Part shown: positions 1,399 to 55,241 of the stretch, piece after piece
Position numbering within the stretch: the first letter of the stretch is position 1
Layout: each line of letters starts with the position of its first letter
Source of the DNA: Pseudomonas frederiksbergensis
GTDB lineage: Bacteria; Pseudomonadota; Gammaproteobacteria; Pseudomonadales; Pseudomonadaceae
Reading direction: 5' to 3'
DNA: 64,000 bases
Assembly: GCF_900105495.1 (NCBI RefSeq)
Contig: NZ_FNTF01000002.1
Coordinates: forward strand, 1,277,501-1,341,500
The notes under the pieces: generated by a model
What the model was told of the DNA's origin: nothing
What the model saw: only the letters and a program-made list of their open reading frames with translations
The model's database searches: none
Program-made: the position numbers and the translations under genes

Positions 1399-3324
1399 TC
1401 ACTCTCCTTGTTCATTTGACGTGTCTGCAGCAGGATTTGTTGCAGGGGATTGATGCTCATAGTGCGGAGTCTGTTTTCGCCATTGTCTAACCATCGCAGA
1501 GTAATCGTTAGGGTCACGGCGTTGTCCCCAACCTGCGGGTCCTTCATAAGCGATTTGGTTTTGATCGAGTAAGCTTCTTACTACCACCTTTGGATCAACG
1601 CTATCCGGTCGACGATTGGGCGGAGGGGGTGTAATTAAGGTGCGTACAGGCAGGCTTACTGCTTCGCCAACAATAATGGCCTCGCCAGTTCTCAGAACGG
1701 GCAGCATATCAAATAATCCCTTCAAGTTGTCGGAAGCTGCACTGGATATATGTCCGCGATCAACTTCGTTCGATAATCTAAGGGCGAAAATAGTGCCACA
1801 TTGCGAAAGTATGGTGGAGTCAATTTCAGAAGGGCGTTGACTTACAATCATCATTCCGACTCCGTACTTACGACCCTCTTTAGCTATTTTCCTTACGGCG
1901 GCAGCCGCCATGCCTGAGTTTTCTTTGGATAAGTAAGTGTGAGCTTCTTCTAAAACTAACAATAAAGGACGCTCGCGGCCACCTTCGGGTAAGTTTCTCG
2001 ACCAAAAAATCGCATCATACAAAACACGTAAAAGCGCTCCAATAAGATCATTGAGAATAGAAGAAGGGATTCCGGATAGGTCGAGTATAGTTATCGGGGT
2101 TGGTCCTCCAATCCAGCTCTGAAGAACCATATCCAGATCGGAAGCTGTTCTGCCATCAATGTTAGGGAGCCAGTCTCCAGGGTTGAATATAAACGCTAGC
2201 CTAGGGTCTCGTAACTTTGAGGCTAGCCCTGCGAGTGGTTGCTTCATGCCAATAGCATCTCTGCTCAACTGCACTCGCTCGTTTGCAGGTCCAGTTGTTT
2301 TGACTGTTCGGTAGAGTGGTGGAGTAACCGACATCGCATCGCCCAATTCAACAGGCGTTCCTAAAGCGTCTAAAACATAGGCTGGATCAACTTCGTCGGT
2401 GGCACCGCCGGGTCTTGGGATGAGCGTTAAGTGTTCGCGCTTATGGAGTTCAAACCAAAGCTTGTGTAAACAGAACGGAGTGGGGGTATCGACGGTAACT
2501 TGCGATATATCAACTCCATTTCGAGGTTGGCTTACTAGGCTTTCTTTTTTTAGTTGCACTACAAAGTCGGCCACACTTGACGAGTGAGTGTCTGATAATT
2601 TTCCAAATGCTAGTGTGGTGAATTCTTCAAAGCTTAATGCCCAAAATGGTATGTAAAGTGATGATCGCGCTCTAGCTATGTCACCCGAAATAGAGAAAAC
2701 AGACGCTTTATCTGATAGCGCACGTGAGTACTCTCCGTGGATATCTAATACTACGATCCTTGCGGAAGGGTAGCGCTCGCTATCAGACAAGGCACTAAGT
2801 AGTCCCGCTACGGTTGTAGATTTTCCTGAGCCCGTAGTGCCCACAACTGCAGAGTGGCGCGTAACTAGCTTGTTTATATTTATTAACGATGGAATGGACT
2901 CAGCGCTCGCTAGGTGCCCCACGGAAACAAAGTCTTGAGGCTCACCTGCACCGTAGATTGCTAATAGGTCTGCTTCGGTGACGATATGTACTCGATCTTC
3001 AATCGTGGGATGTTGTGAAATCCCTCGCTCAAATTTTCCTCCTCTTTGACCTTCGCCAACCATCTGTACTGTGACCCAACGATTTCCGTAGATTTTTTTA
3101 TCTTGCTCGCCGGAGGGGGCCGCTCCTGCTCCTACTTGAGATACAACACCATATAGGTCAACAAATCCCAGTGGAATACGTACGAAACTACCAATTTGCC
3201 CTATGCGATATCCTTCCCCATGCACGAAGCCAAGGCCTGTAACTGTGTCATTACTAAGTTCAACAGTTATAGTTGCTCCGTGTACATCTTGAACTGTTCC
3301 AATAAAGGTCGGGTCACGGAGCAT
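1399..3324 (-). CDS. HerA-like hexameric ATPase/translocase (DUF87), SIR2-HerA defence
   Basis: A 641-residue protein of the HerA/FtsK superfamily. It has an N-terminal HAS-barrel-like beta region (about 1-130), Walker A GTTGSGKST at 162-170, VLDIHGEYS at 192-200, Walker B LLLVLEEAH ending at about residue 461, and the motif SQRPSEID at 495-502, which is characteristic of bacterial HerA ATPases. HerA proteins form hexameric DNA-translocating rings. When paired with a SIR2 protein they form a known anti-phage complex that depletes NAD and degrades nucleic acid. The start overlaps the end of the SIR2 gene by 11 nt, with a ribosome-binding-like CCAGGTGA upstream. Base composition is clearly more AT-rich than pckA, which points to horizontal acquisition. 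Confidence 0.9.
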   Translation of the reverse strand: MLRDPTFIGTVQDVHGATITVELSNDTVTGLGFVHGEGYRIGQIGSFVRIPLGFVDLYGVVSQVGAGAAPSGEQDKKIYGNRWVTVQMVGEGQRGGKFERGISQHPTIEDRVHIVTEADLLAIYGAGEPQDFVSVGHLASAESIPSLININKLVTRHSAVVGTTGSGKSTTVAGLLSALSDSERYPSARIVVLDIHGEYSRALSDKASVFSISGDIARARSSLYIPFWALSFEEFTTLAFGKLSDTHSSSVADFVVQLKKESLVSQPRNGVDISQVTVDTPTPFCLHKLWFELHKREHLTLIPRPGGATDEVDPAYVLDALGTPVELGDAMSVTPPLYRTVKTTGPANERVQLSRDAIGMKQPLAGLASKLRDPRLAFIFNPGDWLPNIDGRTASDLDMVLQSWIGGPTPITILDLSGIPSSILNDLIGALLRVLYDAIFWSRNLPEGGRERPLLLVLEEAHTYLSKENSGMAAAAVRKIAKEGRKYGVGMMIVSQRPSEIDSTILSQCGTIFALRLSNEVDRGHISSAASDNLKGLFDMLPVLRTGEAIIVGEAVSLPVRTLITPPPPNRRPDSVDPKVVVRSLLDQNQIAYEGPAGWGQRRDPNDYSAMVRQWRKQTPHYEHQSPATNPAADTSNEQGE

Positions 3325-4540
3325 TTTGAGTCACCTGGTCGTCTCCAGTCCATGCAAGTTGGCGAGCGAGAAAGTCTCCAAAATATTTAAAGTCTCCAAG
3401 TTTGAACTCACTAGAGATTTCTTCCGGTGCTGCAGGATTATTTTGGCGCTTTATGACGCTGACGTTATGAAGTGGATGGTCCCTCTGTTCCTCAGTTTTC
3501 CAAGACTTATCTAAAGTGCCAAGCACTGCACCGTCGGCAGCCAATAAACTTAAGTTTGGGTGCTTGGCTGCTTTGCTTATTGCTTCGGGATAGTCGGCTC
3601 TATTGCCGAATAAAAGCCCAAAGCATATAGCTGTTGGATTGCTACGTAGTCCATGTAATATAACTTCGTTCAGATGTTGGTCAGCAAAAGAATATCCACA
3701 GGTTATTAAAACTGCTTGCCCTCTACCAAGGAATGATCTCAGTCTATCTTGCATCGCAAGATATGGCATTCTACGGCTTTGGTCATATTTAAGGTGGGAC
3801 GGATAGATCATTTGCCTGTCTTCATCACTAGATGCTTCGCGACGAATAACCTCTTCACTTTCCGTCCGCCACCAATTTACCGAGCCATGCAGTTTCCATA
3901 GCCTTGCCCATCTAGGAGGCAGAGATTCATTTTCTATAGATGTAAGGTCGAAGAAAGCATTTTTTGACCCAACAAACCCATCAAAGTATGGGATTTTGTG
4001 CATTTCTAGGGCTTGCTCAACCAACAAATCGTAGTTTGGGGTGAATATTTCGATTGGGTGCTCACGTTTAATTCCCCCTATCCATGTTGCGAGCTGGTGG
4101 TAAGGTGTTTTTTTTGTCGGAAGATCAACGCCTACCTCGGCAGTGGTCAACCTGCAAATCTCTTTGTCCAACGCAGCTAGTGATGATTTGGTCAGCCCAT
4201 CAATATTCCCCTCTCTAACAACATCTTGAAGAGCACGGATATGGGTCAAAATATCTTCTAATGTTGGGTTGGCTGGAATTCCATCTTTAAATCTATTCAT
4301 CAAAATAGAGTAGTCACCTTCAAACTCTCCAGGCGTGCTCAATTTTTCATGAATCAGAGTAGTTAATCCTCTTATATCGGGAATAAGTGGTTTTGTGCTG
4401 GATGATGGTGGGTCGGTAGGTAAGCGTATCGAGACCGGGCACCCCGCTCCGAGGAGGAAGGCTATACGCATTTTATCGGGGGCCAATGCTTGCTGGAGAA
4501 GAATGGATTGTCTGTACGGGCAATGAGGAACTGCTGTCAT
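3314..4540 (-). CDS. SIR2-family NADase, SIR2-HerA defence
   Basis: A 408-residue SIR2-fold protein. It has the NAD-binding GAG motif LLGAGCPVSI at 29-38, FTPNYDLLVE at 166-175 and KLHGSVNWW at 216-224, where H218 is the expected catalytic histidine. SIR2 proteins in defence operons hydrolyse NAD+ on phage infection, and together with HerA they assemble a large two-protein complex. The gene is first in the operon and overlaps herA by 11 nt. The start at 4540 is the longest option; an internal ATG at 4471, just before the beta strand leading to GAG, is possible, but neither has a strong ribosome-binding site. The 281 bp upstream (4541-4821) hold no gene, only a short run of GGCCTCGAT-type repeats at 4711-4737 and presumably the promoter. 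Confidence 0.88.
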   Translation of the reverse strand: MTAVPHCPYRQSILLQQALAPDKMRIAFLLGAGCPVSIRLPTDPPSSSTKPLIPDIRGLTTLIHEKLSTPGEFEGDYSILMNRFKDGIPANPTLEDILTHIRALQDVVREGNIDGLTKSSLAALDKEICRLTTAEVGVDLPTKKTPYHQLATWIGGIKREHPIEIFTPNYDLLVEQALEMHKIPYFDGFVGSKNAFFDLTSIENESLPPRWARLWKLHGSVNWWRTESEEVIRREASSDEDRQMIYPSHLKYDQSRRMPYLAMQDRLRSFLGRGQAVLITCGYSFADQHLNEVILHGLRSNPTAICFGLLFGNRADYPEAISKAAKHPNLSLLAADGAVLGTLDKSWKTEEQRDHPLHNVSVIKRQNNPAAPEEISSEFKLGDFKYFGDFLARQLAWTGDDQVTQNAP

Positions 4541-44073: not shown

Positions 44074-44095
44074 TGTATGGTGCCGGCATCAGACG
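44066..44095 (+). repeat. 30-bp direct repeat, left copy (att-like)
   Basis: Matches 45086-45115 at 29 of 30 positions (T for C in GGCATCAG). Contains TGGTGCCGGCATCAG at 44078-44092, one mismatch from the 3' end of tRNA-Thr at 53795-53809. It borders the gene at 44150. Confidence 0.8.
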
Positions 44096-44149
44096 GAAAA
44101 ATAGATCCGTCCCCTTTTTTCCTGAACGCTCATTATCAGCTTGACCGGA

Positions 44150-44971
44150 TCACGGGCTTGGTGGATTCAGAGCGCGATTACTTCGGGTCAGGAAGGTCGC
44201 GAATACCCATGCGAGTGCGAAAATTAGAAACATCATTCCGGCAATGAAATAGCCCGTTAAACCCAGCTCTGAACAGGTTTTGCTTGCGAAATACACACCT
44301 GACATCACACAGACCATGGTCGTAGGGATTTTTATCATTGGTCCAATCTTAGTAACCGATCGAAAGTCAGTTATACCCAGGAAAAACAGGTAGAAGGTCA
44401 AGCTAGTCACGGCTACGACGCCAGTGAGAGATGCTGTAAATGGCCGCGACTGATTTTGCGTCATGTCTTCAAAAATAATGTCTCGCACGCCCGCGATCCT
44501 AGCGTGCGCTACTAGATCAAGTGGACCTGAACTCACGATGGTGACAGTGACTTGATCCTTTGGATTCGAGAGGAAAGGCAGAAACTTAAGCCTGTTTTCT
44601 TCGATCGATACTTTGGCGGGTATACCTGCAGGGTCTGACCCTGTGATCTGAGCCGTAATCAGCTTGGAATCGTTTTTTGTGCGTACTTCGAGCGATGTTT
44701 CAAAGTCGGCGCTGAGAATAGGTTTCGAGCCGGTATTGATAAGTGCAAGTGAGTAAATATGGGGTGAATCGATTTTCGATCCGTTAACGGTTATCTGGAG
44801 ATCGTGAATCTTTGAGTCAGAAGGCAGCTCAAGGTCTGATGAAGAGACAAGGCGGACTGTGAGTGAATGAGCGGTAAAGTCTGCTTTCCAGAAATAGAAA
44901 GGTATCACCACGCTGACGATGGCGATCAGACTCGTAAGCGCAAACTTCCAGTCCAGCACTTTCCATTTCAT
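44150..44971 (-). CDS. Hypothetical membrane protein (three or four TM)
   Basis: A 273-residue protein with TM1 near the N-terminus (FALTSLIAIVSVVIPFYFW), a beta-rich extracytoplasmic domain of about 140 residues (SLTVRLVSSSDLELP, DLQITVNGSK), and C-terminal TM segments (VVAVTSLTFYLFFLGI, TTMVCVMSGVYFAS, FIAGMMFLIFALAWVFATFL). No family recognised. The base composition is lower in GC than core genes. It is the only gene between the two 30-bp direct repeats, so it is probably the cargo of a small past insertion. Confidence 0.7.
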   Translation of the reverse strand: MKWKVLDWKFALTSLIAIVSVVIPFYFWKADFTAHSLTVRLVSSSDLELPSDSKIHDLQITVNGSKIDSPHIYSLALINTGSKPILSADFETSLEVRTKNDSKLITAQITGSDPAGIPAKVSIEENRLKFLPFLSNPKDQVTVTIVSSGPLDLVAHARIAGVRDIIFEDMTQNQSRPFTASLTGVVAVTSLTFYLFFLGITDFRSVTKIGPMIKIPTTMVCVMSGVYFASKTCSELGLTGYFIAGMMFLIFALAWVFATFLTRSNRALNPPSP

Positions 44972-45063
44972 GTGCTCGCTTCCATTGCAGACGCCGCGCT
45001 GTCGTAAGTGGCCTAGAAGGTTTTGCGCTTATTACGTGACTTATTACGTATCGCGCATAAACG

Positions 45064-45089
45064 AAAGGCCCGCATTTCTGCGAGCCTTT
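45064..45089 (+). terminator. Terminator-like hairpin at island left end
   Basis: AAAGGCCCGCA-TTTC-TGCGAGCCTTTGTTTTG with small mismatches. It is directly fused to the att-like core, as at 44039. Confidence 0.7.
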
Positions 45090-45115
45090 GTTTTGTATGG
45101 TGCCGGCACCAGACG
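45086..45115 (+). repeat. 30-bp direct repeat, right copy; candidate attachment site
   Basis: Contains TGGTGCCGGCACCAG (45098-45112), identical over 15 bp to the 3' end of tRNA-Thr (53795-53809), in the same orientation. Taken as the distal attachment site of the island. Confidence 0.7.
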
Positions 45116-45921: not shown

Positions 45922-46458
45922 ATGATGATATTTGTGGCGGGTGTATATGGTGTTGGCAAAACAACTATTTGCAACTTTCTGGCAAGTAGTCTGGGCTATG
46001 TTGCCGTCAGCGCTAGCGCACTAATTAAACAGCGTCGGGGCGAGACGACTTGGGACGACGTAAAAAGAACGAGTGACATTTCAACAAATCAGGATCATTT
46101 AATACAAGCAGTACATGATCTTCAAAATACCAATCAAAAGAATATTCTGGATGGCCACTTCGCGCTTTTAGATAATGCCGGAAAAATCCTGACGGTCGAC
46201 ATTAATGTTTTTTTAGCATTAAACATTGACGCAGTACTTTTGATTGAGGATCAGCCCGCAGAAATACTAGCACGCTTAAATCTACGAGATTCTGCCAGCT
46301 GGGAATTGTATGTATTAGAAAACTTAGTTATAGCAGAGCGAGAAGGCGCGCTCAGATTTCATCGAGAAAGTGGTATTCCTATTGCGATTTTTCAAAGAGA
46401 TGAATTGCAAGAAATTGTGAAATTTATATCAGATCTCGAAAGTAGCAATAAAAGATGA
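45922..46458 (+). CDS. P-loop NTPase, nucleotide-kinase-like
   Basis: A 178-residue protein with Walker A GVYGVGKTTI right at the N-terminus (MMIFVAGVYGVGKTT), VSASALIKQRRGE, DGHFALLDNAG and a lid-like RLNLRDS. The fold resembles adenylate-kinase-like AAA_17/AAA_33 proteins that phosphorylate small molecules or nucleic acid ends. Starts at 45922 and 45925 are both possible; an upstream ATG at 45895 is less likely. First gene of a four-gene plus-strand operon; 22 bp to the next. AT-rich. Confidence 0.75.
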   Translation: MMIFVAGVYGVGKTTICNFLASSLGYVAVSASALIKQRRGETTWDDVKRTSDISTNQDHLIQAVHDLQNTNQKNILDGHFALLDNAGKILTVDINVFLALNIDAVLLIEDQPAEILARLNLRDSASWELYVLENLVIAEREGALRFHRESGIPIAIFQRDELQEIVKFISDLESSNKR

Positions 46459-46480
46459 TCTACGGATCAAGGAGCGGCAA

Positions 46481-47539
46481 GTGAACGGCCTGCAATATAA
46501 GAAATTCTCCGAGATTAACATCAATGACATTTTTTTTGACTCATTAAAAGCTGACTATAGTGAGTTCGCAGATTGGTTTTTGAAGAAGTCAGACGCGGGA
46601 GAGGAAGCCTACGTCTTCTATAATTCCCGCCGTAGGATGGACGGCTTCCTATATTTAAAAAAGGAAGCTGCCTCTGACATTACTATCGATCCACCTCTCC
46701 CGGCGGGGACTGCTCTTAAAGTGGGCACATTGAAAATCAACGCCCATGGCACAAAGCTTGGAGAACGATTCGTAAAAAAAGTTTTTGATCATGCAATGAG
46801 CCTAGGTGTTGATTATATTTACGTAACAGTGTTCGACAAGCACGATGGGCTCATTGCATTACTAGAGCGTTATGGATTTGAAAAGCGGGGAGAGAAAATT
46901 AGTCATAATGGATCAGAACACGTCTTGATCCGAACTTTGAACGAGATTTCTGGAGATGTAGTCAAAGATTTTCCTCACTTCGATGTTTCCAATAAACAAT
47001 ATTATTTATTGGCTATCTATCCCCAATACCATTCCTCATTTTTGCCTGACTCGATACTAAATGGAGAGAGCCATGACATATTGGAAGATGTTTCTCACAC
47101 GAACAGCATTCACAAAATTTATATCTCAGGCATAAATCGTACAAAGTGCCTGAAGTCCGGCGACATTATTGCTATTTACCGAACCAACGATGGGAAGGGA
47201 AAAGCGTATTACCGTTCAGTGGTTTCATCATTAGGCGTGGTAGAAGAGGTTCGTCAAATAAGATCATTCAAAAATGAGTCTCAGTTTATTAAATATGCAA
47301 AGCCTTATAGCATATTTACTATTGAGCAGTTAAAAGAGTATTTTACCAGCAAGCAAAAATCATATATAATAAAATTTACTTACAATGCAGCATTGAAAAA
47401 AAGAATTATCCGAAAGCGATTAATTGAAGAATGTTTAATTAGCACTCGTACTCGATGGGATTTCACCCGGATTACAGAAGCTCAGCTAAGATGGATCGCG
47501 GATAAAGGTGAAATAAATGAAAGTATTATTGTCAATTAA
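46481..47539 (+). CDS. GNAT acetyltransferase fused to PUA/EVE-like domain
   Basis: A 352-residue protein. GTG start, with AAGGAG 7 nt upstream. Residues about 1-150 are GNAT-like: YVFYNSRRRMDGFLYLKKE, LKVGTLKINAHGTKLGERFV (the acetyl-CoA-binding motif with KLG(E/K)R), IYVTVFDKHDGLIALLERYG and FEKRGEK. Residues about 170-330 (QYYLLAIYPQYHSSFLPDS, GINRTKCLKSGDIIAIYRT, GKGKAYYRSVVSSLGVVEEV) look like a PUA-superfamily fold, as in EVE or ASCH proteins that bind modified bases or RNA. The 3' end overlaps the ASCH gene by 23 nt. Confidence 0.75.
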   Translation: MNGLQYKKFSEININDIFFDSLKADYSEFADWFLKKSDAGEEAYVFYNSRRRMDGFLYLKKEAASDITIDPPLPAGTALKVGTLKINAHGTKLGERFVKKVFDHAMSLGVDYIYVTVFDKHDGLIALLERYGFEKRGEKISHNGSEHVLIRTLNEISGDVVKDFPHFDVSNKQYYLLAIYPQYHSSFLPDSILNGESHDILEDVSHTNSIHKIYISGINRTKCLKSGDIIAIYRTNDGKGKAYYRSVVSSLGVVEEVRQIRSFKNESQFIKYAKPYSIFTIEQLKEYFTSKQKSYIIKFTYNAALKKRIIRKRLIEECLISTRTRWDFTRITEAQLRWIADKGEINESIIVN

Positions 47540-47930
47540 GCCCGAGTATGCCAGCAAAATCCTTAGCGGTGAAAAGAAATTTGAATTTCGAAAAGTGTCT
47601 TTTACTAATAGCGAAATCAAAACTGTAGTGATTTATGCAACAAAACCAGTTGGTAAAGTCGTTGGTGAATTTGAGGTTTTGAAGATTTATAGTGATTCAC
47701 CTACAAATATCTGGAAGCGGACGAAGCGCTATGCGGGTATTGATAAAAAATATTTCGACAGCTACTACGAAGGTAAAAGCTTAGCGGTGGCGATTGCGGT
47801 TGGTGCTGTTCACGAATATGAAAAGCCTAAAAACCTATCGGATATCGGGGTGGGGATCTCTCCCCCTCAATCTTTCTGCTATATTAAAGCTGCCGACTGT
47901 GACCAGCAGCGAGAGCTTGAGCTTGTATAG
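47517..47930 (+). CDS. ASCH-domain protein (PUA-like)
   Basis: A 137-residue protein. KVLLSIKPEYASKILSGEKK then FEFRKV is the classic ASCH start, followed by VVIYATKPVGKVVGEFEV and YAGIDKKYFDSYYEG. ASCH domains are PUA-fold proteins; some bind RNA, some are N4-acetylcytidine amidohydrolases (YqfB-like). Which applies here is unknown. Starts inside the end of the GNAT-PUA gene, indicating translational coupling. Confidence 0.85.
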   Translation: MKVLLSIKPEYASKILSGEKKFEFRKVSFTNSEIKTVVIYATKPVGKVVGEFEVLKIYSDSPTNIWKRTKRYAGIDKKYFDSYYEGKSLAVAIAVGAVHEYEKPKNLSDIGVGISPPQSFCYIKAADCDQQRELELV

Positions 47931-47939
47931 GAGCTCTCA

Positions 47940-48518
47940 GTGGTGACAAGACCAGTGTTCGGGGGGGATATGGCGTGGGATTCTAGCTTATTGAAAGTCA
48001 TTGATCGTAAGTTTCTTATTGCGAATCCGTGGGCGCACGATGAATTAATGCCTCTTATCATGGGGCACCTTTACGAGTTATCTGGTTATTATCCAGAATT
48101 TAATCAATGGCTGGATCATAAGGTTATTCCTGGTCTAGTATCGGGTGAGAGATCAATACTCTTGGAGCACAGCCGTGGTCAACTCGCTGGCCTAGCAATC
48201 GTGAAGGATGATTCAGTAGAACAGAAACTGTGCTGTTTACGTGTCCTGCCGAAGTTCCAAGGAACTGGTGTAGGTCTGAAGCTGTTTGAAAGATCTTTCG
48301 AGGCGCTGAATAATAGCGCGCCATTACTTTCAATCGCCGAAGAGCAAAAGCATGTATTTGAGAAGCTTTTTAAATATTATGGCTTCGAGCTTGCAAAAAA
48401 ATACTATAGTTATTATCGTCCGCGGAAAGACGAGCTGAGCTTCAACGGCTTGATCGAGCCTGAGCCAAGCTTTAAACGTGTTTCGAGCGACCAAAGGAAG
48501 TTAATTTTTACTACGTAA
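47940..48518 (+). CDS. GNAT-family N-acetyltransferase
   Basis: A 192-residue acetyltransferase; GTG start after TAGGAGCTCTCA. The acetyl-CoA motif is CCLRVLPKFQGTGVGLKLFE with QGTGVG, followed by FEKLFKYYGFELAKKYYSYY. The substrate is unknown. Fourth gene of the cargo operon, 9 bp after the ASCH gene. Its 3' end overlaps the convergent gene by 18 bp. Confidence 0.82.
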   Translation: MVTRPVFGGDMAWDSSLLKVIDRKFLIANPWAHDELMPLIMGHLYELSGYYPEFNQWLDHKVIPGLVSGERSILLEHSRGQLAGLAIVKDDSVEQKLCCLRVLPKFQGTGVGLKLFERSFEALNNSAPLLSIAEEQKHVFEKLFKYYGFELAKKYYSYYRPRKDELSFNGLIEPEPSFKRVSSDQRKLIFTT

Positions 48519-49880
48519 ATATCGTAGCATTCTTTTTTTTGCACTTTCAAATAATGGCTTCGACCCGATTATTAGGAGGCCAATACCTAGGTACATAGAA
48601 AGCCAGCCAGTTTTTACACCGCAACCATTAGGGAATTTTTGTATTACGCACTCATTGGTGATTTCCCACAAAGCGCTACCAGCAACTCCGAATATCAGTA
48701 CTAGTGCTATAAATCTAATAATCGATAGATAATCCGATTTCACCTTGGAAAATCGACCGAGCACTATCAAGTCCTTTACTCTTGTGCTGTCCTCTCTACT
48801 TGCCGTCCATTGGTATCCCAGATAGTTTCTAACACTATTCTCTTCCGAAATCCCTACGCTATTATCCAAGCGAATATATTCATTCCAGACCTCTTCGTCC
48901 ATTAAGGAGCGATAACCTTTATAGTCTTTAGTGTCAGAAACGCAGACTTCATCGCGAATAGTTGTCAAAAAACAATGAATTCGCTTGAATTTCGGAAATT
49001 CTAGTTTTTCGTTACCGCTTAATAGTTCTTCAGGGACTCCACGTAAAACATTAATTCTAAAGTCAATAATGCGAGTTTCTGTATTGGAACTAATGAGCGC
49101 TCGGTCTTTCTGTAAGAAATTCACGCTATATACGGTTGATGGGATATTTCTGATTCGAAATCTTATATAAGCTGATTGTCGCTTATCTTCTGGCTTTACA
49201 AAGCCGGGACGACTTGGTAGTGCAATAGTTAATCGAGTACAAAGGTTCTCATCGCTCAAGAATATGGGTTCAACTTTAAAAAGCTGCGTATTGAGCCTAA
49301 GAAGTGAAAACGGCTTTTCATCTTTGCCATCTTTTCGAAAGCTAATATTGGCGAAATTTCCTTCCGCGAAACCATCGTAGTGTACAACTTCGTTAAATAT
49401 TGCAGCTACGCTTTTTTCGCCATTTAATCTTGCCCCTAAATCGCTAACATCCTTCAGCTCGACTTTCCATGGCAAGTCAACTACGACCGCGCAGTACTTG
49501 TCCCGCTGACCAATCATTACTCCAACATCCATAAATGGAGAAATACGATCTCGCCCCGTCTCCCAAAGATTTACATGGAGTTCGTCCTCTAGCTCCCTCT
49601 CACATAGATCACCAGTGGCCTTACGTCTTTCAGCCTCTTTCTCAGCAATACGTTCTGCATTTGCTTTTTTTGTAAAAGCTTTCCAGCTACGAGTTGAAAA
49701 GTGAGCATCATTATCTACGTGGCTATCGGACTCGCCTTCAGATGCAGTGGAGGGCGTCGGGGCTGTCTGCTTTGGCTGATCGCCTGAAGGGACCGCTTTT
49801 CTCTGATCGCAGTCACATTGAACTGGTGTCTCGGTGTCAGATAAATACCTGACGATTATCCCTGAAAAAGAATGGCGCAT
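48501..49880 (-). CDS. Hypothetical protein with two C-terminal TM segments
   Basis: A 459-residue protein from ATG 49880 (earlier in-frame starts up to 50051 are possible but add no recognisable sequence). A charged segment (AFTKKANAERIAEKEAERRK) may be coiled coil; a large soluble middle part (VGVMIGQRDKYCAVVVDLPW, VVHYDGFAEGNFANISFRKD) is not recognised; two TM helices at the end (IIRFIALVLIFGVAGSAL, LSMYLGIGLLIIGS). AT-rich island gene. It could be a membrane effector or sensor; no motif proves it. Confidence 0.65.
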   Translation of the reverse strand: MRHSFSGIIVRYLSDTETPVQCDCDQRKAVPSGDQPKQTAPTPSTASEGESDSHVDNDAHFSTRSWKAFTKKANAERIAEKEAERRKATGDLCERELEDELHVNLWETGRDRISPFMDVGVMIGQRDKYCAVVVDLPWKVELKDVSDLGARLNGEKSVAAIFNEVVHYDGFAEGNFANISFRKDGKDEKPFSLLRLNTQLFKVEPIFLSDENLCTRLTIALPSRPGFVKPEDKRQSAYIRFRIRNIPSTVYSVNFLQKDRALISSNTETRIIDFRINVLRGVPEELLSGNEKLEFPKFKRIHCFLTTIRDEVCVSDTKDYKGYRSLMDEEVWNEYIRLDNSVGISEENSVRNYLGYQWTASREDSTRVKDLIVLGRFSKVKSDYLSIIRFIALVLIFGVAGSALWEITNECVIQKFPNGCGVKTGWLSMYLGIGLLIIGSKPLFESAKKRMLRYLRSKN

Positions 49881-50142: not shown

Positions 50143-50418
50143 CTAGCGGTTGAACTGCCAAGGTTTTCCTAGGCGATAAGTGAGTAATTGCATGGTCAGC
50201 AAATAGTAATAGCGCGTCGATTCAGTGTGCTGGTTTAGGTGGTGATTCAAAAACCACGCAAGGTGTTTTCTCTGCCAAGTCCATGGATTGTCGCGTTGCC
50301 AGCGCTCAGCGATTGCTGTTTGGATAGCCTTCGCCTGACGCAGGTGGCGTTGACGCGTGGTATACGACCCGGTCAGGACGCTCACCAGGAACAGATCCAT
50401 ATCGAATGCCGTGCTCAC
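50143..50418 (-). CDS. Recombinase-associated small protein
   Basis: A 91-residue protein, rich in Trp, His and Tyr (WQRDNPWTWQRKHLAWFLNH, TRYYYLLTMQLLTYRLGKPW). No domain recognised. It starts inside the stop of the recombinase (4-nt overlap), so it is co-translated and probably works with it, perhaps as a directionality or accessory factor. Confidence 0.65.
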   Translation of the reverse strand: MSTAFDMDLFLVSVLTGSYTTRQRHLRQAKAIQTAIAERWQRDNPWTWQRKHLAWFLNHHLNQHTESTRYYYLLTMQLLTYRLGKPWQFNR

Positions 50419-51395
50419 GCTCGACCACCAATGTAAGCGGCCACCACGACGATACGGCCGTGCCCCAGCTCATAGCTGATTTGTACTCGGGCATCCTGAT
50501 CTAGGCGCCGGTCGAGTTGATAGCAATTGCCTCCGTTGATGGGGGCGAGATGATGGGTGATTTGCTCATAGCGTTCGCAAGCATAGGCTGCCCGCAATTC
50601 GTGGAAGCCTTTGAGGTCGTGCTTATGGATGATGTCCCGTGCGGGGCTGACGATTCCCTGCAAGAAATCGAGGTAGCGTTCGTTCGGTGCAAGTAGGTTG
50701 CGGCTACCGTCGGGCGAGACCTGTTCGGCAAACCTCTGTGCGTCACGAATATGATCATCTACCGTAATCCAACGAGGTGCTGATGCGCCTGAACGGCCAC
50801 CTTTGGTGCCGTCCTGGATGTTGATCTTTCCGAATTGCTTGGCTTCACGTTTTAGACGGGGAAGGTCGGCCAAAATCGCCTCGCGCAAGCGCATACCGGT
50901 GGCTCGCGCTAACTGAGCGATGGCCGCGGCGCGCGGCTGCTGGTTTTCGCAAAGCACCTCTACGATCCGCTTCACCTGTTCGCGGTCCTGGCCTTGCGGC
51001 ACTGAACGACGAACACTGGTGCGCTGCATTCCCAGCGCCTTACTCGGGCTCGGCACTTTCACATACGGATCACCGCGAAGCGCGGCCATGGTCCGATTCA
51101 CACTGGACAACCGGTTTTGCGCAGTCGCGATGGCCATCTCACCTCGTTCAACTTGTTGGCGCAGATGTCCGGCGTAGTCCAGCAAGGTCTGCCAATTAAT
51201 CTGCCGCGCATCGTTAAATCCTGGTCCATCCTCCGACCGACACCAGCGTACAAACGCCTGCCAGCGATCAGTGTGCGCTTTGACCGTCCCGTAATGCCCA
51301 CCGCCAAACAGATCTTTCAGCGCTTGCGGCCCCGCATAGCTCAATTGCCGGCCATAGCCAAAATTGCGCCCATCCCGTCTACCGACCAATGCCAT
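50415..51395 (-). CDS. Tyrosine recombinase, integrase-domain protein (second recombinase)
   Basis: A 326-residue site-specific recombinase of the 'integrase domain-containing' type common in Pseudomonas islands. An N-terminal SAM-like DNA-binding domain (about 25-110) precedes the catalytic core, with candidate catalytic residues R169/R171 (ATGMRLREAIL), K198 (DGTKGGRSG), H265 and R268 (GFHELRAAYACERY), H312 (LGHGRI) and Y321 (AYIGG). Intact by these criteria. Distinct from the P4-type integrase near the tRNA. Confidence 0.83.
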   Translation of the reverse strand: MALVGRRDGRNFGYGRQLSYAGPQALKDLFGGGHYGTVKAHTDRWQAFVRWCRSEDGPGFNDARQINWQTLLDYAGHLRQQVERGEMAIATAQNRLSSVNRTMAALRGDPYVKVPSPSKALGMQRTSVRRSVPQGQDREQVKRIVEVLCENQQPRAAAIAQLARATGMRLREAILADLPRLKREAKQFGKINIQDGTKGGRSGASAPRWITVDDHIRDAQRFAEQVSPDGSRNLLAPNERYLDFLQGIVSPARDIIHKHDLKGFHELRAAYACERYEQITHHLAPINGGNCYQLDRRLDQDARVQISYELGHGRIVVVAAYIGGRA

Positions 51396-51685
51396 GATCG
51401 AACTCCTCTCTAAGCCAAAACTTTTAAAACCTTCCTCACGTCATCCCGCCAAGAATGCTGAGTGTTATCAGGGATCAAGGCCCCTGCGACCTGTGAGGGT
51501 TGTCCACTAACGCGGGACTGGCGGCTCCTTACGACCGGGAGCTTGGGCATCTCATGATCTGACCTCCTGAGCACTTCCGAAGAAGTGGGCGGGTGGAGGC
51601 TGCACTGGCTGACGAGGCCAGCGCCGCGAGATCCTGAGTTAGGTGAAGGCAGTGATGCGATGACCGGGGCGTGCCTGACTGTCAG

Positions 51686-51988
51686 TCAGGTGCAGTCCAT
51701 TCTCTGGGCTGCGGCACCATCATCTGCATCGCTGTTGCCGGTGACTTCGGTGTTTGTCACGCCGATTGTCACGAGGGGGAATGCCGCAAAGCCTTGTACG
51801 AGTTGGGCTGCAGCAGCGGTTGGAGCGCCCGTCTCTTTCCGGGAGAAAGAGACGGGCGCAGGTTGGCGCACGGGAGTGGCCAAGCGGATAGGTTGCTGCA
51901 GGGCAGCTATGAAAGGGGATGAGTTGCCGCAGTGGGCACACTGGTAAAAGTAGGCATCCATCACTCGGCGAGTGACCGTGCGAGCCAC
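51686..51988 (-). CDS. Doubtful small zinc-ribbon-like protein
   Basis: A 100-residue frame with MDAYFYQCAHCGNSSPFIAA near the N-terminus, which looks like one half of a zinc ribbon (CxxC). The C-terminal part is read through the perfect hairpin and has low-complexity Ala residues. Opposite-strand frames are equally long, so coding is not established. Confidence 0.3.
   Translation of the reverse strand: MARTVTRRVMDAYFYQCAHCGNSSPFIAALQQPIRLATPVRQPAPVSFSRKETGAPTAAAAQLVQGFAAFPLVTIGVTNTEVTGNSDADDGAAAQRMDCT
51825..51859. repeat. Perfect 15-bp hairpin
   Basis: GCGCCCGTCTCTTTC and its exact complement around the loop CGGGA. No T run follows, so it is not a normal terminator. Confidence 0.9.
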
Positions 51989-52098
51989 CGGACGCTAATC
52001 GCACTTTGGGAGAACCACCACGGTGTGGCGTAGCCTTAAAGGTTCTGGCTACCTGGGTTGCTGTCAACGACAGCGCTTTGCCCGATCTTTTCTACGCC

Positions 52099-52188
52099 TG
52101 TGGATAATTCGGGTCAAGGCTCGAATTTTCGGGAGTTCTGCGGCTGTGGATGAAATTATCCACCGGTGGAAATCCGTGGTTTTCCACA
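52099..52188. promoter_or_regulatory. Cluster of four DnaA-box-like sites (candidate origin)
   Basis: TGTGGATAA 52099-52107 is a perfect DnaA box. TGTGGATGA 52145, TTATCCACC 52156 and TTTTCCACA 52180 differ by one base each. The last three lie in inverted order in 44 bp, next to AATTTTCGGG and GTGGAAA/TTTCCAC repeats. Confidence 0.5.
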
Positions 52189-52222
52189 GACAGTTGCGTG
52201 GGCTTTAGATTTTTTAAGTGAG

Positions 52223-52265
52223 GTCCATCCAAGCAGGGCGGCTTTGCAGCCCCGCTTGGATGGAC
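52223..52265. repeat. 17-bp inverted repeat downstream of integrase
   Basis: GTCCATCCAAGCAGGGC pairs with GCCCCGCTTGGATGGAC (one mismatch) around a 9-nt loop, 36 bp beyond the integrase stop on the minus strand. No clear U tract follows. Confidence 0.8.
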
Positions 52266-52301
52266 CCGCGTGGAAGGGCGGACAACGGTGATCTCACAGG
52301 C

Positions 52302-53630
52302 TTACCCACGTTTGGATGCGCCACGGCTATTTTGTAGGGCGGTGATGTTGTCGCCGACGGGGTGAGCGAATTCGTGGGGCGTCACATGCCCATGGCGGTT
52401 GGCGTCGATGTAGTTGCTCCACCACGCCATGATCAGCCGGCGCTGCTCCAGAAATTCAGCTTTGTGGATATACGCGGCACGCACGCGGTTGCGTTCCTTG
52501 TGGCTCATTTGTCTTTCGATGGCTGCGTCGGTCCATAACCCGGACTCCAGCAGGGCGCTACAGGCCATGGTCCTGAAGCCGTGGCCGCACACGTCCTTGC
52601 TGGTGTCATAGCCGACGTTGCGGAGCATGGTATTCACCGTGTTCTCGGACATGGGCTTCCAGTACTTGTGGTCGCCCGGTAGCACCAACTCTGAAAAGCG
52701 ACTGAGGCTGCGCAGGCGCTCCAGTATTTCGATGACCTGCGGCGATAGCGGAACCATTTGAATGTCGCCGTTCATCTTGGTCCCGCGTGTGGAGTTGCGT
52801 ACCCCTTCAATCGGTGCGCGCGTATCGGGGATTTCCCACATGGCACGTTGGAAGTCGAACTCACTCCATCGAGCGAAGCGCAGTTCGCTGGAGCGGACGA
52901 ATACATGCAGAGTCAGTAGCACAGCAAGGCGCGTCAGCTCGCGGCCGTTGTAGTTGTCGATACGGTGTAGCAGTTCGGGTAGGCGGTTGAGGGATAGGGC
53001 CGGGCGATGGACTGTGCGCGGCGCGTGAATCGAGCCTGCCAGATCCAGTGCAGGATTCATGGTGATCTGCCGAGCCCTTTTGGCCCCGCGCATGATGGTG
53101 GATAAGTAGTTCTGTACCCTTAACGCCACATCCATGGTGCCGCGTTCCTTGATGCGCTGGGTGATCTCTAGCAGGTCATGGGTATCGAGTTCAGCGATGG
53201 GGCGTTGGCCGATCAACGGGAAGACGTGGGTACGCAGTCGGCTCATCACGGTTTTTGCGTGTCCTTCGGTCCAGCGACGGGACATGTCGGTGTGCCACTC
53301 CAGAGCAACGGTTTCGAAAAGCAGTGCCGCCCGCTGGGCTACGATCTTGGCCTTCTTCTTTTCTTCCATTGGGTCGAGATTGTCGAGCAGCAACGCCTTG
53401 GCTTCGTCTCGCTTACGTCGTGCGACGGAAAGGGTAACGATGGGGTAATTGCCGATGATGAGCGTACCTTCCTTGCCGCTGGGCTTGGTGTACTTCAAGC
53501 GCCAGGTCTTCACGCCATTGGGTTTGACGAAAAGGTACATGCCGCCGCCGTCGAACAGTTTGTAGGCGCGTTCGCGGGTTTTGGCCGTGCGGCATTGCAG
53601 GTCGCTGAGAGGGATCGCTAGACGTGGCAT
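52302..53630 (-). CDS. P4-type tyrosine integrase (DUF4102 arm domain)
   Basis: A 442-residue integrase. The N-terminal arm-binding DUF4102 domain (LFDGGGMYLFVKPNGVKTWR, IIGNYPIVTLSVARRKRDEA) is followed by a core-binding domain (about 100-190) and the catalytic domain with R246 (VRSSELRFARW), H350 and R353 (CGHGFRTMACSALLE), H377 (QMSHKERNRVRAAY) and Y387. It is complete and therefore probably active. It lies 164 bp from the 3' end of tRNA-Thr, the typical site. Start at ATG 53630; the frame to 53768 adds unlikely residues. Confidence 0.93.
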   Translation of the reverse strand: MPRLAIPLSDLQCRTAKTRERAYKLFDGGGMYLFVKPNGVKTWRLKYTKPSGKEGTLIIGNYPIVTLSVARRKRDEAKALLLDNLDPMEEKKKAKIVAQRAALLFETVALEWHTDMSRRWTEGHAKTVMSRLRTHVFPLIGQRPIAELDTHDLLEITQRIKERGTMDVALRVQNYLSTIMRGAKRARQITMNPALDLAGSIHAPRTVHRPALSLNRLPELLHRIDNYNGRELTRLAVLLTLHVFVRSSELRFARWSEFDFQRAMWEIPDTRAPIEGVRNSTRGTKMNGDIQMVPLSPQVIEILERLRSLSRFSELVLPGDHKYWKPMSENTVNTMLRNVGYDTSKDVCGHGFRTMACSALLESGLWTDAAIERQMSHKERNRVRAAYIHKAEFLEQRRLIMAWWSNYIDANRHGHVTPHEFAHPVGDNITALQNSRGASKRG

Positions 53631-53725
53631 AGGGGTACGCGCTCCTGACCGGAAAATCGCAGTACCCCTAACATACCCTCGGGGAAGGGGGATTTTGTTG
53701 GATCCCGACAGAGGGTCCTGGAACG

Positions 53726-53752
53726 AAAAAACCCGCCAAAGGGCGGGTTTTC
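53726..53752 (-). terminator. Terminator of tRNA-Thr (inside island end)
   Basis: Read on the minus strand: AAAACCCGCC-CTTT-GGCGGGTTTTTTCG, 43 bp beyond the tRNA 3' end. Confidence 0.85.
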
Positions 53753-53794
53753 GGGGCTTCCAGAGCATTCGGTGGAATGCAATGGAGCCTAATG

Positions 53795-53870
<76 letters not shown>

Positions 53871-53999
53871 GTGTTGGGCGACGATTATAGCGATTGGGTT
53901 GGTTCTGTAAACCCCTGAATTCAGACTATTTTTGCGCAGGCGTCAGGCCCGCCCCACGGGCGCTTCTGCGGGGCCGGCCAATGCGATTGCTTTAAAGCG

Positions 54000-55241
54000 T
54001 TACACGCCGTTTTTAACCGCGTTGATCAAGTCCTGGCTCAGCACCTGCGCGGGCGCCACTTGCACGCTTTGCGTGTAGAACGGCGGCAGGTTCTGGGCCA
54101 GTGTCGACAAGGCTTGCGGGGTGGTGTTGCCCGGCAGCAGCACGTATTGGAGGTTGGACGGATAGCTCTGTGGAACCGGGCCTTCCATGGTCGAACCGTA
54201 CGCGCCGAAGGTCATCACGGCCTGCGGGGTGGTGGGGTCGGGGGCGTAGAGGAAGACGAAGGTGCCGTATTTTGGATGCGTCAGGTATTGCTCGGCCTGG
54301 GCGCGAACCGCTGGGTCGGGGTCGTTCATCAGGGTCCAGCGCATGACCGCGTAGTTGCGGGTGGTTTCCATGAACGCTGTCCGAATCGGCGACTGGTTCT
54401 CGACGCCGCCCAGACACACCAGCAGGTTGCCGAACGGATCGATGAGGGCTACCGAGTTGAACACTGTGCTTTGTTGCGCAGTCTTCAATAGCGGCGGAGC
54501 GAGTTCTGCGCCGGGGTCACGCGGGTTGGCCGATTGCACAGTCAATGCAAACGGGCTGAGCGCAGTCAGTGCCTGGCGGACTTTGCTGGTGGCCGGGAGG
54601 TTTGCCGGGTTTTGCAGTTGATCCGGCGGCAGACCGCTGTTGTTGCTGGCCTCGCGGACGGTGTTGACGCTGGCGGAGAAGATCGAACTGGTGAGGAAGT
54701 AAGCCGCCGAGTCGATGGTCTGGCCAGCAAACACCGGACTGGTCGAGCCCTGATAGGCACGGCTGACCGGCGCCGCAATCGCGTAATAACCCCAGGTGTC
54801 TTGCGCCTGTTGGCGGATCTGCGGCGGCAGCGATGGAAAGGTGAACTGGCTGTTGTAGTTGATGCCTGCGTAGTCATCGATCGCACTGACGGCGACGTTA
54901 AATCCTGCAGTCAGCAGCGAACCGGCGCACATGGCGCACGGGTCTAGCGTGGTGACGACGGTCAACTGATTGGGCGGTGGCAGGTTCAATGGCGCGGCGT
55001 TTTCGTAGTACCAGTCCACCAATTGCCGTTCGCCGTGGGCGGTCGGGTCATGAGGTAGAAAGTACGTGGTGCCACCGCCGGGGATAGGCATCAGCACGTT
55101 GTTGTGCAGCGCGGCGATGACCTCGCCCGTTGCGTTGTTGATGATGGCGCCGCCCACCGCGAAGGTTTGCTGCAGCGCAGCTTCAATGGCTTGGTTGGCG
55201 ACGGTATCGACGGCTTCCTGTGCACTGTTCAATGTGCTCAT
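54000..55241 (-). CDS. Cytidine-deaminase-fold protein, long form
   Basis: A 413-residue protein. Zinc-site signatures of the CDA superfamily are complete: H69-GE71 in DPTAHGERQLVDW and P101-CAMC-105 in TTLDPCAMCAGSLL, with E71 as proton shuttle. The first 160 residues form the deaminase domain; the remaining 250 (VFAGQTIDSAAYFL, LLPGNTTPQALSTLAQNLPP) are not recognised. Most guanine or cytidine deaminases are 130-160 residues, so this is an unusual two-part protein. No signal peptide. Substrate unknown. The 297 bp upstream hold a single DnaA-like box at 55519 but no gene. Confidence 0.75.
   Translation of the reverse strand: MSTLNSAQEAVDTVANQAIEAALQQTFAVGGAIINNATGEVIAALHNNVLMPIPGGGTTYFLPHDPTAHGERQLVDWYYENAAPLNLPPPNQLTVVTTLDPCAMCAGSLLTAGFNVAVSAIDDYAGINYNSQFTFPSLPPQIRQQAQDTWGYYAIAAPVSRAYQGSTSPVFAGQTIDSAAYFLTSSIFSASVNTVREASNNSGLPPDQLQNPANLPATSKVRQALTALSPFALTVQSANPRDPGAELAPPLLKTAQQSTVFNSVALIDPFGNLLVCLGGVENQSPIRTAFMETTRNYAVMRWTLMNDPDPAVRAQAEQYLTHPKYGTFVFLYAPDPTTPQAVMTFGAYGSTMEGPVPQSYPSNLQYVLLPGNTTPQALSTLAQNLPPFYTQSVQVAPAQVLSQDLINAVKNGV

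What the first reader, a model, noticed from the sequence alone, without database searches (positions are those of the whole stretch)
45922..48518. Candidate new system: P-loop protein, GNAT-PUA, ASCH, GNAT
Four genes in a tight AT-rich operon on a mobile island: a small nucleotide-kinase-like NTPase, an acetyltransferase fused to a PUA/EVE-like domain, an ASCH (PUA-fold) protein translated from within its 3' end, and a second acetyltransferase. PUA, EVE and ASCH folds read modified bases or RNA, some ASCH proteins remove acetyl groups from N4-acetylcytidine, and GNAT proteins can acetylate aminoacyl-tRNA. A defence or competition system based on acetylation of tRNA or nucleosides is a plausible reading. 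I know no described system with this composition.
Basis: inference. Interest (0 to 1): 0.75.

Follow-up and report, generated by a model that had tools for sequence, protein, structure and literature searches.

The report
Five-gene version of GevTA phage-defence module
The four reported genes are real, but the core pair is an already catalogued toxin-antitoxin-like phage-defence candidate; what looks new is that a second acetyltransferase and an overlooked, probably membrane-anchored protein on the opposite strand travel with it in three bacterial phyla.

Summary
The four ORFs exist and are intact, but the composition is not undescribed. GNAT-PUA and ASCH are full-length matches to PADLOC candidate PDC-M11A/B. 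(PIN-)GNAT-EVE + ASCH, often with AAA_17, was described by Bell et al. 2020. A phage record labels the pair GevT toxin / GevA antitoxin. All five lie within 5 kb in 13 places in Pseudomonadota, Campylobacterota, Bacillota and viral contigs, in shuffled order. All 6 places found with DN48 in plasmids and viral contigs sit beside the system. GNAT2 is a distant relative of the toxin's GNAT domain. The block is cargo of an ~8.7 kb tRNA-Thr element; a same-species genome carries Gabija there. ASCH lacks the YqfB threonine nucleophile, so the acetyl-eraser idea is unlikely; it is kin to the RNA-cutting ZmASCH. Verdict: a new five-gene variant of a known kind for which I found no experiment, probably a toxin-antitoxin-type abortive-infection system. 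The roles of GNAT2 and DN48 are inferred.

The parts
45922..46458 (+). P-loop kinase-like protein (AAA_17 family), Walker A GVYGVGK and DGH motif
   Evidence: G8, G11, G13, K14, D78, H80 and R123 in 30 of 30 aligned rows (a few identical copies), and invariant in 13 of 13
46481..47539 (+). GNAT-EVE protein, GevT-like (PADLOC PDC-M11A); GNAT fold about 1-155, PUA/EVE-type C-terminal half
   Evidence: PDLC04419 E 5.8e-141; model pLDDT 84.6
47517..47930 (+). ASCH protein, GevA-like (PDC-M11B), start overlapping the GNAT-EVE 3' end by 23 bp
   Evidence: PDLC04425 E 9.7e-51; overlap of exactly 23 bp in 76 of 83 pairs
47940..48518 (+). GNAT2, stand-alone acetyltransferase distantly related to the GNAT domain of GNAT-EVE; acetyl-CoA motif QGTGVG
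   Evidence: phrog_13728 hit by both GNAT2 (1.2e-23) and GNAT-EVE (4.7e-29); hhalign E 3.3e-6
48501..49880 (-). DN48 (name given here): 459-aa protein, beta-sandwich plus two C-terminal helices, the first clearly hydrophobic (probable membrane anchor); conserved fifth gene, convergent with GNAT2 (ends overlap 18 bp)
   Evidence: the longer ORF runs to 50051, but the start at 49880 (MRHSFSGI) is the one kept in relatives
45098..45111 (.). attachment-site copy: TGGTGCCGGCACCA, same as the tRNA-Thr 3' end
   Evidence: exact 14-mer (a palindrome) found only here and at 53795 in the 64-kb window
53795..53870 (-). tRNA-Thr(TGT), integration target; its 3' end carries the other att copy (53795-53808)
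50143..50418 (-). small protein of the recombinase module (91 aa)
   Evidence: counterpart (92 aa) in same-species locus L113
50415..51395 (-). tyrosine recombinase, Integrase_1
   Evidence: PF12835 E 1.1e-8
52302..53768 (-). tyrosine integrase with Arm-DNA-bind_3 domain, next to tRNA-Thr
   Evidence: PF13356 1.6e-22, PF00589 4.1e-14

Best explanation
A five-gene variant of the GNAT-EVE/ASCH (GevTA, PDC-M11) toxin-antitoxin-like phage-defence kind, carried as cargo of a tRNA-Thr integrative element. Proposed working: GNAT-EVE is the toxin. Its PUA/EVE-type half docks on an RNA, most likely a (modified) tRNA, and its GNAT half acetylates a target there and stops growth. ASCH is made by translational coupling from the toxin's own message, so the two are produced in step. 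It keeps the toxin silent, perhaps by binding the same RNA or the toxin, having the same type of fold as the toxin's C-terminal half. Infection upsets the balance and the cell stops before phage can mature. The P-loop kinase-like protein is an optional regulator. GNAT2 and DN48 form an accessory pair: DN48 a membrane anchor or membrane effector, GNAT2 its likely modifier. SHOWN HERE: gene composition, five-gene linkage across phyla, conserved motifs, fixed overlap, mobile context, swap with Gabija. FROM A RECORD'S LABEL ONLY: which of the pair is toxin and which antitoxin. INFERRED: target, antitoxin mode, trigger, translational coupling, roles of P-loop, GNAT2 and DN48.
For: PADLOC PDC-M11A/B full-length hits. 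GevT toxin / GevA antitoxin labels on the homologous pair of E. coli phage PhiR47_2, between cI and kil, with the same 23-bp overlap. Published proposal of a toxin-antitoxin role for (PIN)-GNAT-EVE + ASCH + AAA_17. All five genes within 5 kb in 13 places: window, L002, L003, L004 and L039 (there with some genes in pieces), L005, L040, L090, L092, L094, L095, L202, L204. From the DN48 side: 3 of 3 plasmid records and 3 of 3 viral loci lie beside the system; in L091 the contig ends before GNAT-EVE but ASCH and GNAT2 are there. DN48-bearing GNAT-EVEs need at least 3 changes on an 89-row tree. Distances co-vary: GNAT2-DN48 r 0.94, GNAT-EVE-DN48 r 0.92 over 11 loci, 0 of 1000 permutations as high. 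Same site in a same-species genome: Gabija GajA 9.3e-233, GajB 2.2e-263, plus an Mrr-type nuclease. Known defence genes near 3 of 4 relatives checked with 10 proteins picked by eye: L040 short pAgo + TIR, L072 AbiEi/AbiEii, L005 type IIG RM; none for the one protein of L092.
Against: No experiment on any member was found; the toxin/antitoxin labels come from one database record whose paper I could not find. The GNAT-EVE acetyl-CoA loop departs from Q/RxxGxG (HGTKLG here; K, R or L at the fourth place in 92 of 94 rows, gaps in 2). GNAT2 and DN48 are absent from most relatives: 6 of the 80 genome loci have both and 4 have DN48 alone; of 80 viral loci 2 have both. So they are accessory. GNAT2-like genes also occur without the system in 5 of 9 plasmid records: four Variovorax records matched with identical scores, of which one was opened, and one Rhizobium. 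A defence neighbourhood does not prove defence. The relative ZmASCH is reported as a ribonuclease, which is odd for a plain antitoxin.
Confidence: 0.6

Rival explanations
1. Addiction module: GNAT-EVE and ASCH chiefly stabilise the integrative element (or a prophage) by killing or stalling cells that lose it; phage defence is secondary or absent.
For: It lies in an att-flanked element, in phage records and viral contigs and on plasmids; toxin/antitoxin labels.
Against: The site swaps Gabija for this block; pAgo, AbiE and RM neighbours; addiction alone does not call for a P-loop protein, a second GNAT and DN48.
Confidence: 0.17
2. Base-modification system: GNAT-EVE acetylates a nucleic-acid base, the P-loop enzyme handles the nucleotide, ASCH reads the modified base (acetylation of a DNA base is the proposal of Iyer et al., as summarised by Bell et al. 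2020; the P-loop and ASCH roles are my extension).
For: PUA/EVE/ASCH folds are reported to bind modified bases; the P-loop protein weakly resembles nucleotide kinases.
Against: The P-loop gene is absent from most loci (27 of 86 have it); the nearest GNAT folds are protein N-terminal acetyltransferases, though a fold shows no function; no role for DN48.
Confidence: 0.1
3. Two neighbouring but separate modules: GevTA plus an unrelated DN48-GNAT2 module sharing the cassette.
For: DN48 and GNAT2 are adjacent in all 14 places holding both, and in the four same-strand cases DN48 precedes GNAT2; most GevTA pairs lack them; GNAT2-like genes exist without GevTA in 5 of 9 plasmid records.
Against: All 6 places found with DN48 in plasmids and viral contigs sit beside GevTA; linkage persists through rearrangements in three phyla; GNAT2 is kin to the toxin's GNAT domain; strong co-divergence.
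Confidence: 0.08
4. One reading: ASCH erases acetyl groups that GNAT puts on cytidine or tRNA.
For: YqfB is an ASCH-domain N4-acetylcytidine amidohydrolase; K20 and R25 fit its Lys21 and Arg26 by spacing.
Against: The nucleophile Thr24, whose alanine mutant is inactive, is Glu in 82 of 82 rows; the closest solved relative is ZmASCH, a single-strand RNase. The YqfB comparison is by motif spacing; no alignment to YqfB was run.
Confidence: 0.03

Closest known systems
PADLOC phage-defence candidate PDC-M11 (M11A + M11B)
   Same: GNAT-EVE and ASCH match its models nearly end to end, E 5.8e-141 and 9.7e-51.
   Different: Only A and B models appear in the hits seen; the P-loop protein matched VakA weakly, GNAT2 only M11A weakly, and the DN48 ORF nothing. 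DN48 and GNAT2 are extra. That PDC stands for phage defence candidate is recalled.
GevT/GevA of Escherichia phage PhiR47_2 (PV340567)
   Same: Same two proteins (48.5% identity for GNAT-EVE), same order and the same 23-bp overlap.
   Different: Lambda-like phage; no P-loop, GNAT2 or DN48 gene among the annotated neighbours or found by HMM in the 11-kb stretch.
(PIN)-GNAT-EVE / ASCH / AAA_17 operons of Bell et al. 2020 (PMC7641849)
   Same: GNAT-EVE + ASCH + AAA_17 gene set, proposed toxin-antitoxin role.
   Different: No long N-terminal extension for a PIN domain here; a second stand-alone GNAT and a membrane partner are not mentioned in the passages and sections I read. Figures are not held.
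ZmASCH (ZMO0922, PDB 5guq/5gus)
   Same: ASCH homologue (1.3e-12), itself a PDC-M11B hit at 1.3e-28 (128-residue fragment). Tyr47, Gln127 and Ser128 are kept as Y40, Q118, S119 in 82 of 82 rows.
   Different: Lys53 is Gly in 80 of 82. Its genomic neighbours could not be examined.

Membership tests
PDC-M11 (PADLOC) | M11A protein (GNAT-EVE) present | tested here: met
   PDLC04419, residues 4-352 of 352, E 5.8e-141
PDC-M11 (PADLOC) | M11B protein (ASCH) adjacent | tested here: met
   PDLC04425 E 9.7e-51, 23-bp overlap
PDC-M11 (PADLOC) | phage defence shown by experiment | not testable with these tools
   No paper held contains the term PDC-M11
GevTA toxin-antitoxin pair | homologues of GevT and GevA in the same order with the same overlap | tested here: met
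GevTA toxin-antitoxin pair | GNAT-EVE is toxic and ASCH neutralises it | not testable with these tools
   Only a record label; no paper found among those listed
GNAT-EVE operons of Bell et al. 2020 | GNAT with a C-terminal EVE/PUA-fold domain | tested here: met
GNAT-EVE operons of Bell et al. 2020 | AAA_17 P-loop partner (often) | tested here: met
   AAA_17 9.8e-16
YqfB-type ac4C amidohydrolase | Lys21-Thr24-Arg26 catalytic set | tested here: not met
   Glu at the Thr24 position in 82 of 82 rows, matched by motif spacing
ZmASCH-type RNA-cleaving ASCH | Tyr47, Lys53, Ser128 cleft residues | tested here: inconclusive
   Tyr and Ser kept 82 of 82; Lys53 replaced by Gly in 80 of 82
M1 aminopeptidase (DN48 fold neighbour) | HEXXH zinc motif | tested here: not met

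The most novel reading that the evidence does not exclude
The block is a two-armed defence system. A GevT/GevA sensor-toxin arm watches tRNA or another RNA, and a second, membrane arm (DN48) is switched by acetylation from GNAT2, a cousin of the toxin's own catalytic domain. Loss of control over GevT would free DN48 to damage or depolarise the membrane. This would be an acetylation-gated membrane effector, a kind I do not know.
Probability: 0.2. Interest if true: 0.75.

Novelty: new variant of a known kind. Interest (0 to 1): 0.5.

Why it matters
GNAT-EVE/ASCH pairs are widespread (2092 database proteins match GNAT-EVE at E <= 0.001; 16 phage and 31 plasmid records), yet I found no published experiment on them among the papers listed by my searches (open-licence papers only, long lists cut at 10-20). 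The five-gene variant adds two testable partners, one of them a probable membrane protein family without a Pfam match. It also gives a way in: a solved ASCH relative with mapped residues. The twin-GNAT layout asks a clean question: does GNAT2 counteract, copy or redirect the toxin's acetyl transfer?

Tried and rejected
Rejected: the YqfB-like eraser (Glu at the nucleophile position). Rejected: DN48 as an M1 peptidase (no HEXXH). Looked for and not found: a Pfam match for DN48 (0 of 74 members at E <= 0.01), a PHROG match for DN48, a conserved RNA inside the block (Rfam hits in 43.5-54.5 kb: radC RNA and tRNA above the gathering score, three weak ones below). Sampling by DN48 over 369 genomes of the class gave only the window's own genome, so a frequency could not be estimated that way. 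Contig-length coincidences (24 of 103 DN48 rows share a longest-contig length with the 120 listed of 2092 GNAT-EVE rows; 15 of 103 with the 66 GNAT2 rows) are only a hint. A viral-contig search with GNAT2 gave 2 loci, both on contigs already found with DN48. The genomic neighbours of ZmASCH in Zymomonas could not be reached. VIA on the GNAT-EVE model covered residues 1-156 in the main, so EVE kinship rests on Foldseek, annotation and Bell et al. The long GNAT-EVE proteins of L086-L088 are taken for the PIN-fused type from their length and PADLOC models; no PIN search was run. The 80 genome loci are the best 80 of 154 relatives and the 80 viral loci the best 80 of 142, so their proportions lean to close relatives. 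In some searches and 105 genes in pieces (L004, L039) were used as their largest piece; L091 was left out of the tree (no GNAT-EVE in it); L001, L082-L088 and L093 were left out of the tree counts. The 82 ASCH rows and 30 P-loop rows include a few identical copies (window loci fetched twice).
Full report

IT IS NOT UNDESCRIBED. Both middle proteins hit PADLOC PDC-M11 nearly end to end. Bell et al. 2020 (PMC7641849; I read passages and sections 10 and 24) describe GNAT-EVE fusions, often with PIN, in operons with ASCH 'and often' an AAA_17 ATPase. They place GNAT-EVE in prophages, propose toxin-antitoxin action and suggest aminoacyl-tRNA as target; they credit Iyer et al. for an earlier account, which is not held. 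Phage PhiR47_2 (PV340567) carries the pair between cI and kil as 'GevT toxin' and 'GevA antitoxin', with the same 23-bp overlap. I found no paper behind these names (nothing relevant in the listed rows). The phage pair is also found, at 99% identity or more, in 274 of 5426 E. coli genomes, all on chromosomes.

A FIFTH GENE. The minus-strand gene that ends against GNAT2 (48501-49880) recurs with the system. I call it DN48. HMMs built from its relatives and from GNAT2 relatives show all five genes within 5 kb in 13 places: this window; L002 Pseudomonas, L003 Erwinia, L004 Morganella (in pieces), L005 Methylophilus, L039 Janthinobacterium (in pieces), L040 Sphingomonas; two viral contigs (L090, L092); plasmids of Pseudomonas CIP-10 (L094), Paenibacillus cellulosilyticus (L095), Nitrosophilus labii (L202, beside TniQ, TniB and a Mu-type transposase gene) and Methylobacterium bullatum (L204). 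Order and strand differ between lineages. GNAT2 and DN48 are neighbours in all 14 places that hold both (the 13 and L091), and DN48 precedes GNAT2 in the four same-strand cases. DN48 without GNAT2 occurs in L047, L056, L066, L072 and L096, all from Rhizobium relatives.

UNBIASED DIRECTION. Loci found by GNAT-EVE cannot test linkage from the other side, so I searched with DN48. In plasmids 3 of 3 records have GNAT-EVE within about 1.3 kb. In viral contigs 3 of 3 loci have ASCH and GNAT2 beside it, and 2 of 3 also GNAT-EVE, the third contig ending first. In 369 genomes of the class only the window's own had it. With GNAT2 in plasmids, 4 of 9 records have the system. Five do not: four Variovorax records matched with identical scores, of which the one opened has a short GNAT beside Wadjet genes, and one Rhizobium, each looked at over 6 kb on either side. 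On a tree of 89 GNAT-EVE proteins the 18 DN48-bearing ones need 3 changes, forced by starred branches; one gain and two losses is not excluded, and L202 sits on a long branch. Distances over 11 loci co-vary: GNAT2-DN48 0.94, GNAT-EVE-DN48 0.92, GNAT-EVE-ASCH 0.94, GNAT-EVE-P-loop 0.58. Shared ancestry of the hosts adds to such correlations.

NOT ALWAYS PRESENT. Among 86 loci: ASCH within 5 kb in 84 (in L047 and L056 it belongs to a second set upstream), P-loop in 27, GNAT2 plus DN48 in 10, DN48 without GNAT2 in 5, and none of the four partners in 1. In 80 viral loci: ASCH in 79, P-loop in 18, all five in 2. GNAT-EVE was found in 7 of 398 genomes of the genus, the window's own included; three of the seven are distant matches (28-30% identity) in longer, 504-547 aa proteins. 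The one of these I scanned matches PADLOC's long PDC-M11A models; I take it for the PIN-fused type of Bell et al., untested. So the core is the pair; P-loop, DN48 and GNAT2 are add-ons in that order of frequency.

MOBILE SETTING. TGGTGCCGGCACCA, the tRNA-Thr 3' end, occurs in the window only at 45098 and 53795, bounding about 8.7 kb. The interval holds the five genes, a 91-aa gene, an Integrase_1 recombinase and an integrase with an Arm-DNA-bind_3 domain. In a same-species genome (G349) the recombinase part (window 50163-54810) is about 90% identical, but the cargo is Gabija (GajA 9.3e-233, GajB 2.2e-263) and an Mrr-type nuclease. In G047 a long (504-aa) GNAT-EVE, ASCH and P-loop set lies between the positions matching window 52282 and 52314 of the same module. 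Such swaps are the best evidence for a defence role. Neighbour check of 10 proteins picked by eye in 4 loci: short pAgo with TIR partner (L040), AbiEi/AbiEii (L072), type IIG RM (L005), nothing for the one protein of L092; the other loci were not checked.

MECHANISM. Most likely a toxin-antitoxin-type abortive-infection system: GNAT-EVE toxin, ASCH antitoxin made in step through the fixed overlap. Toxin and antitoxin share a PUA-type fold, so competition for one RNA is an attractive, untested mode. GNAT2 and DN48 may give a membrane-linked second arm. Confidence 0.6 for the overall kind, about 0.2 for the second-arm idea.

NOVELTY. The kind is known; this five-gene form, with DN48 and GNAT2, I did not find in print (searches; open-licence PMC papers only, long lists seen in part, figures not held). 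Hence new variant of a known kind.

Noticed in passing
window 1399-4540 (-): A SIR2 + HerA pair: HerA 1e-156 and SIR2 1.7e-132 in PADLOC. It is a second, known kind of defence system in the same window, far outside this element.
   Followed up: partly
L113 4975-10028 (same-species genome G349): Gabija (GajA, GajB) and an Mrr-type nuclease at the tRNA-Thr site where the window carries the five-gene block.
   Followed up: yes
L119 5806-8277 (G047), matching window 52282/52314: A 504-aa GNAT-EVE + ASCH + P-loop set in a second cargo position of the same recombinase module.
   Followed up: partly
window 51954-52088 (-): radC RNA motif (RF01754, 83.5 bits, gathering 40) between the two integrase genes; its role there is unclear.
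   Followed up: no
window 44078-45111: A 273-aa protein gene (44150-44971, hydrophobic stretches near both ends by eye, no family match) lies between a degenerate att copy (44078) and the exact one (45098), as if an older cargo unit sits outside the present element.
   Followed up: partly
PDB 5guq/5gus (ZmASCH): The crystallised RNA-cutting ASCH protein belongs to the PDC-M11B family by HMM, a link I did not see made in the passages read.
   Followed up: partly
L202 (Nitrosophilus labii plasmid): The five genes lie next to TniQ, TniB and Mu-type transposase genes, which suggests a Tn7-like setting.
   Followed up: no
L203 (Variovorax plasmid): A short GNAT2-like gene without GevTA lies between a Wadjet JetD-domain gene and a DUF262 gene.
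   Followed up: no
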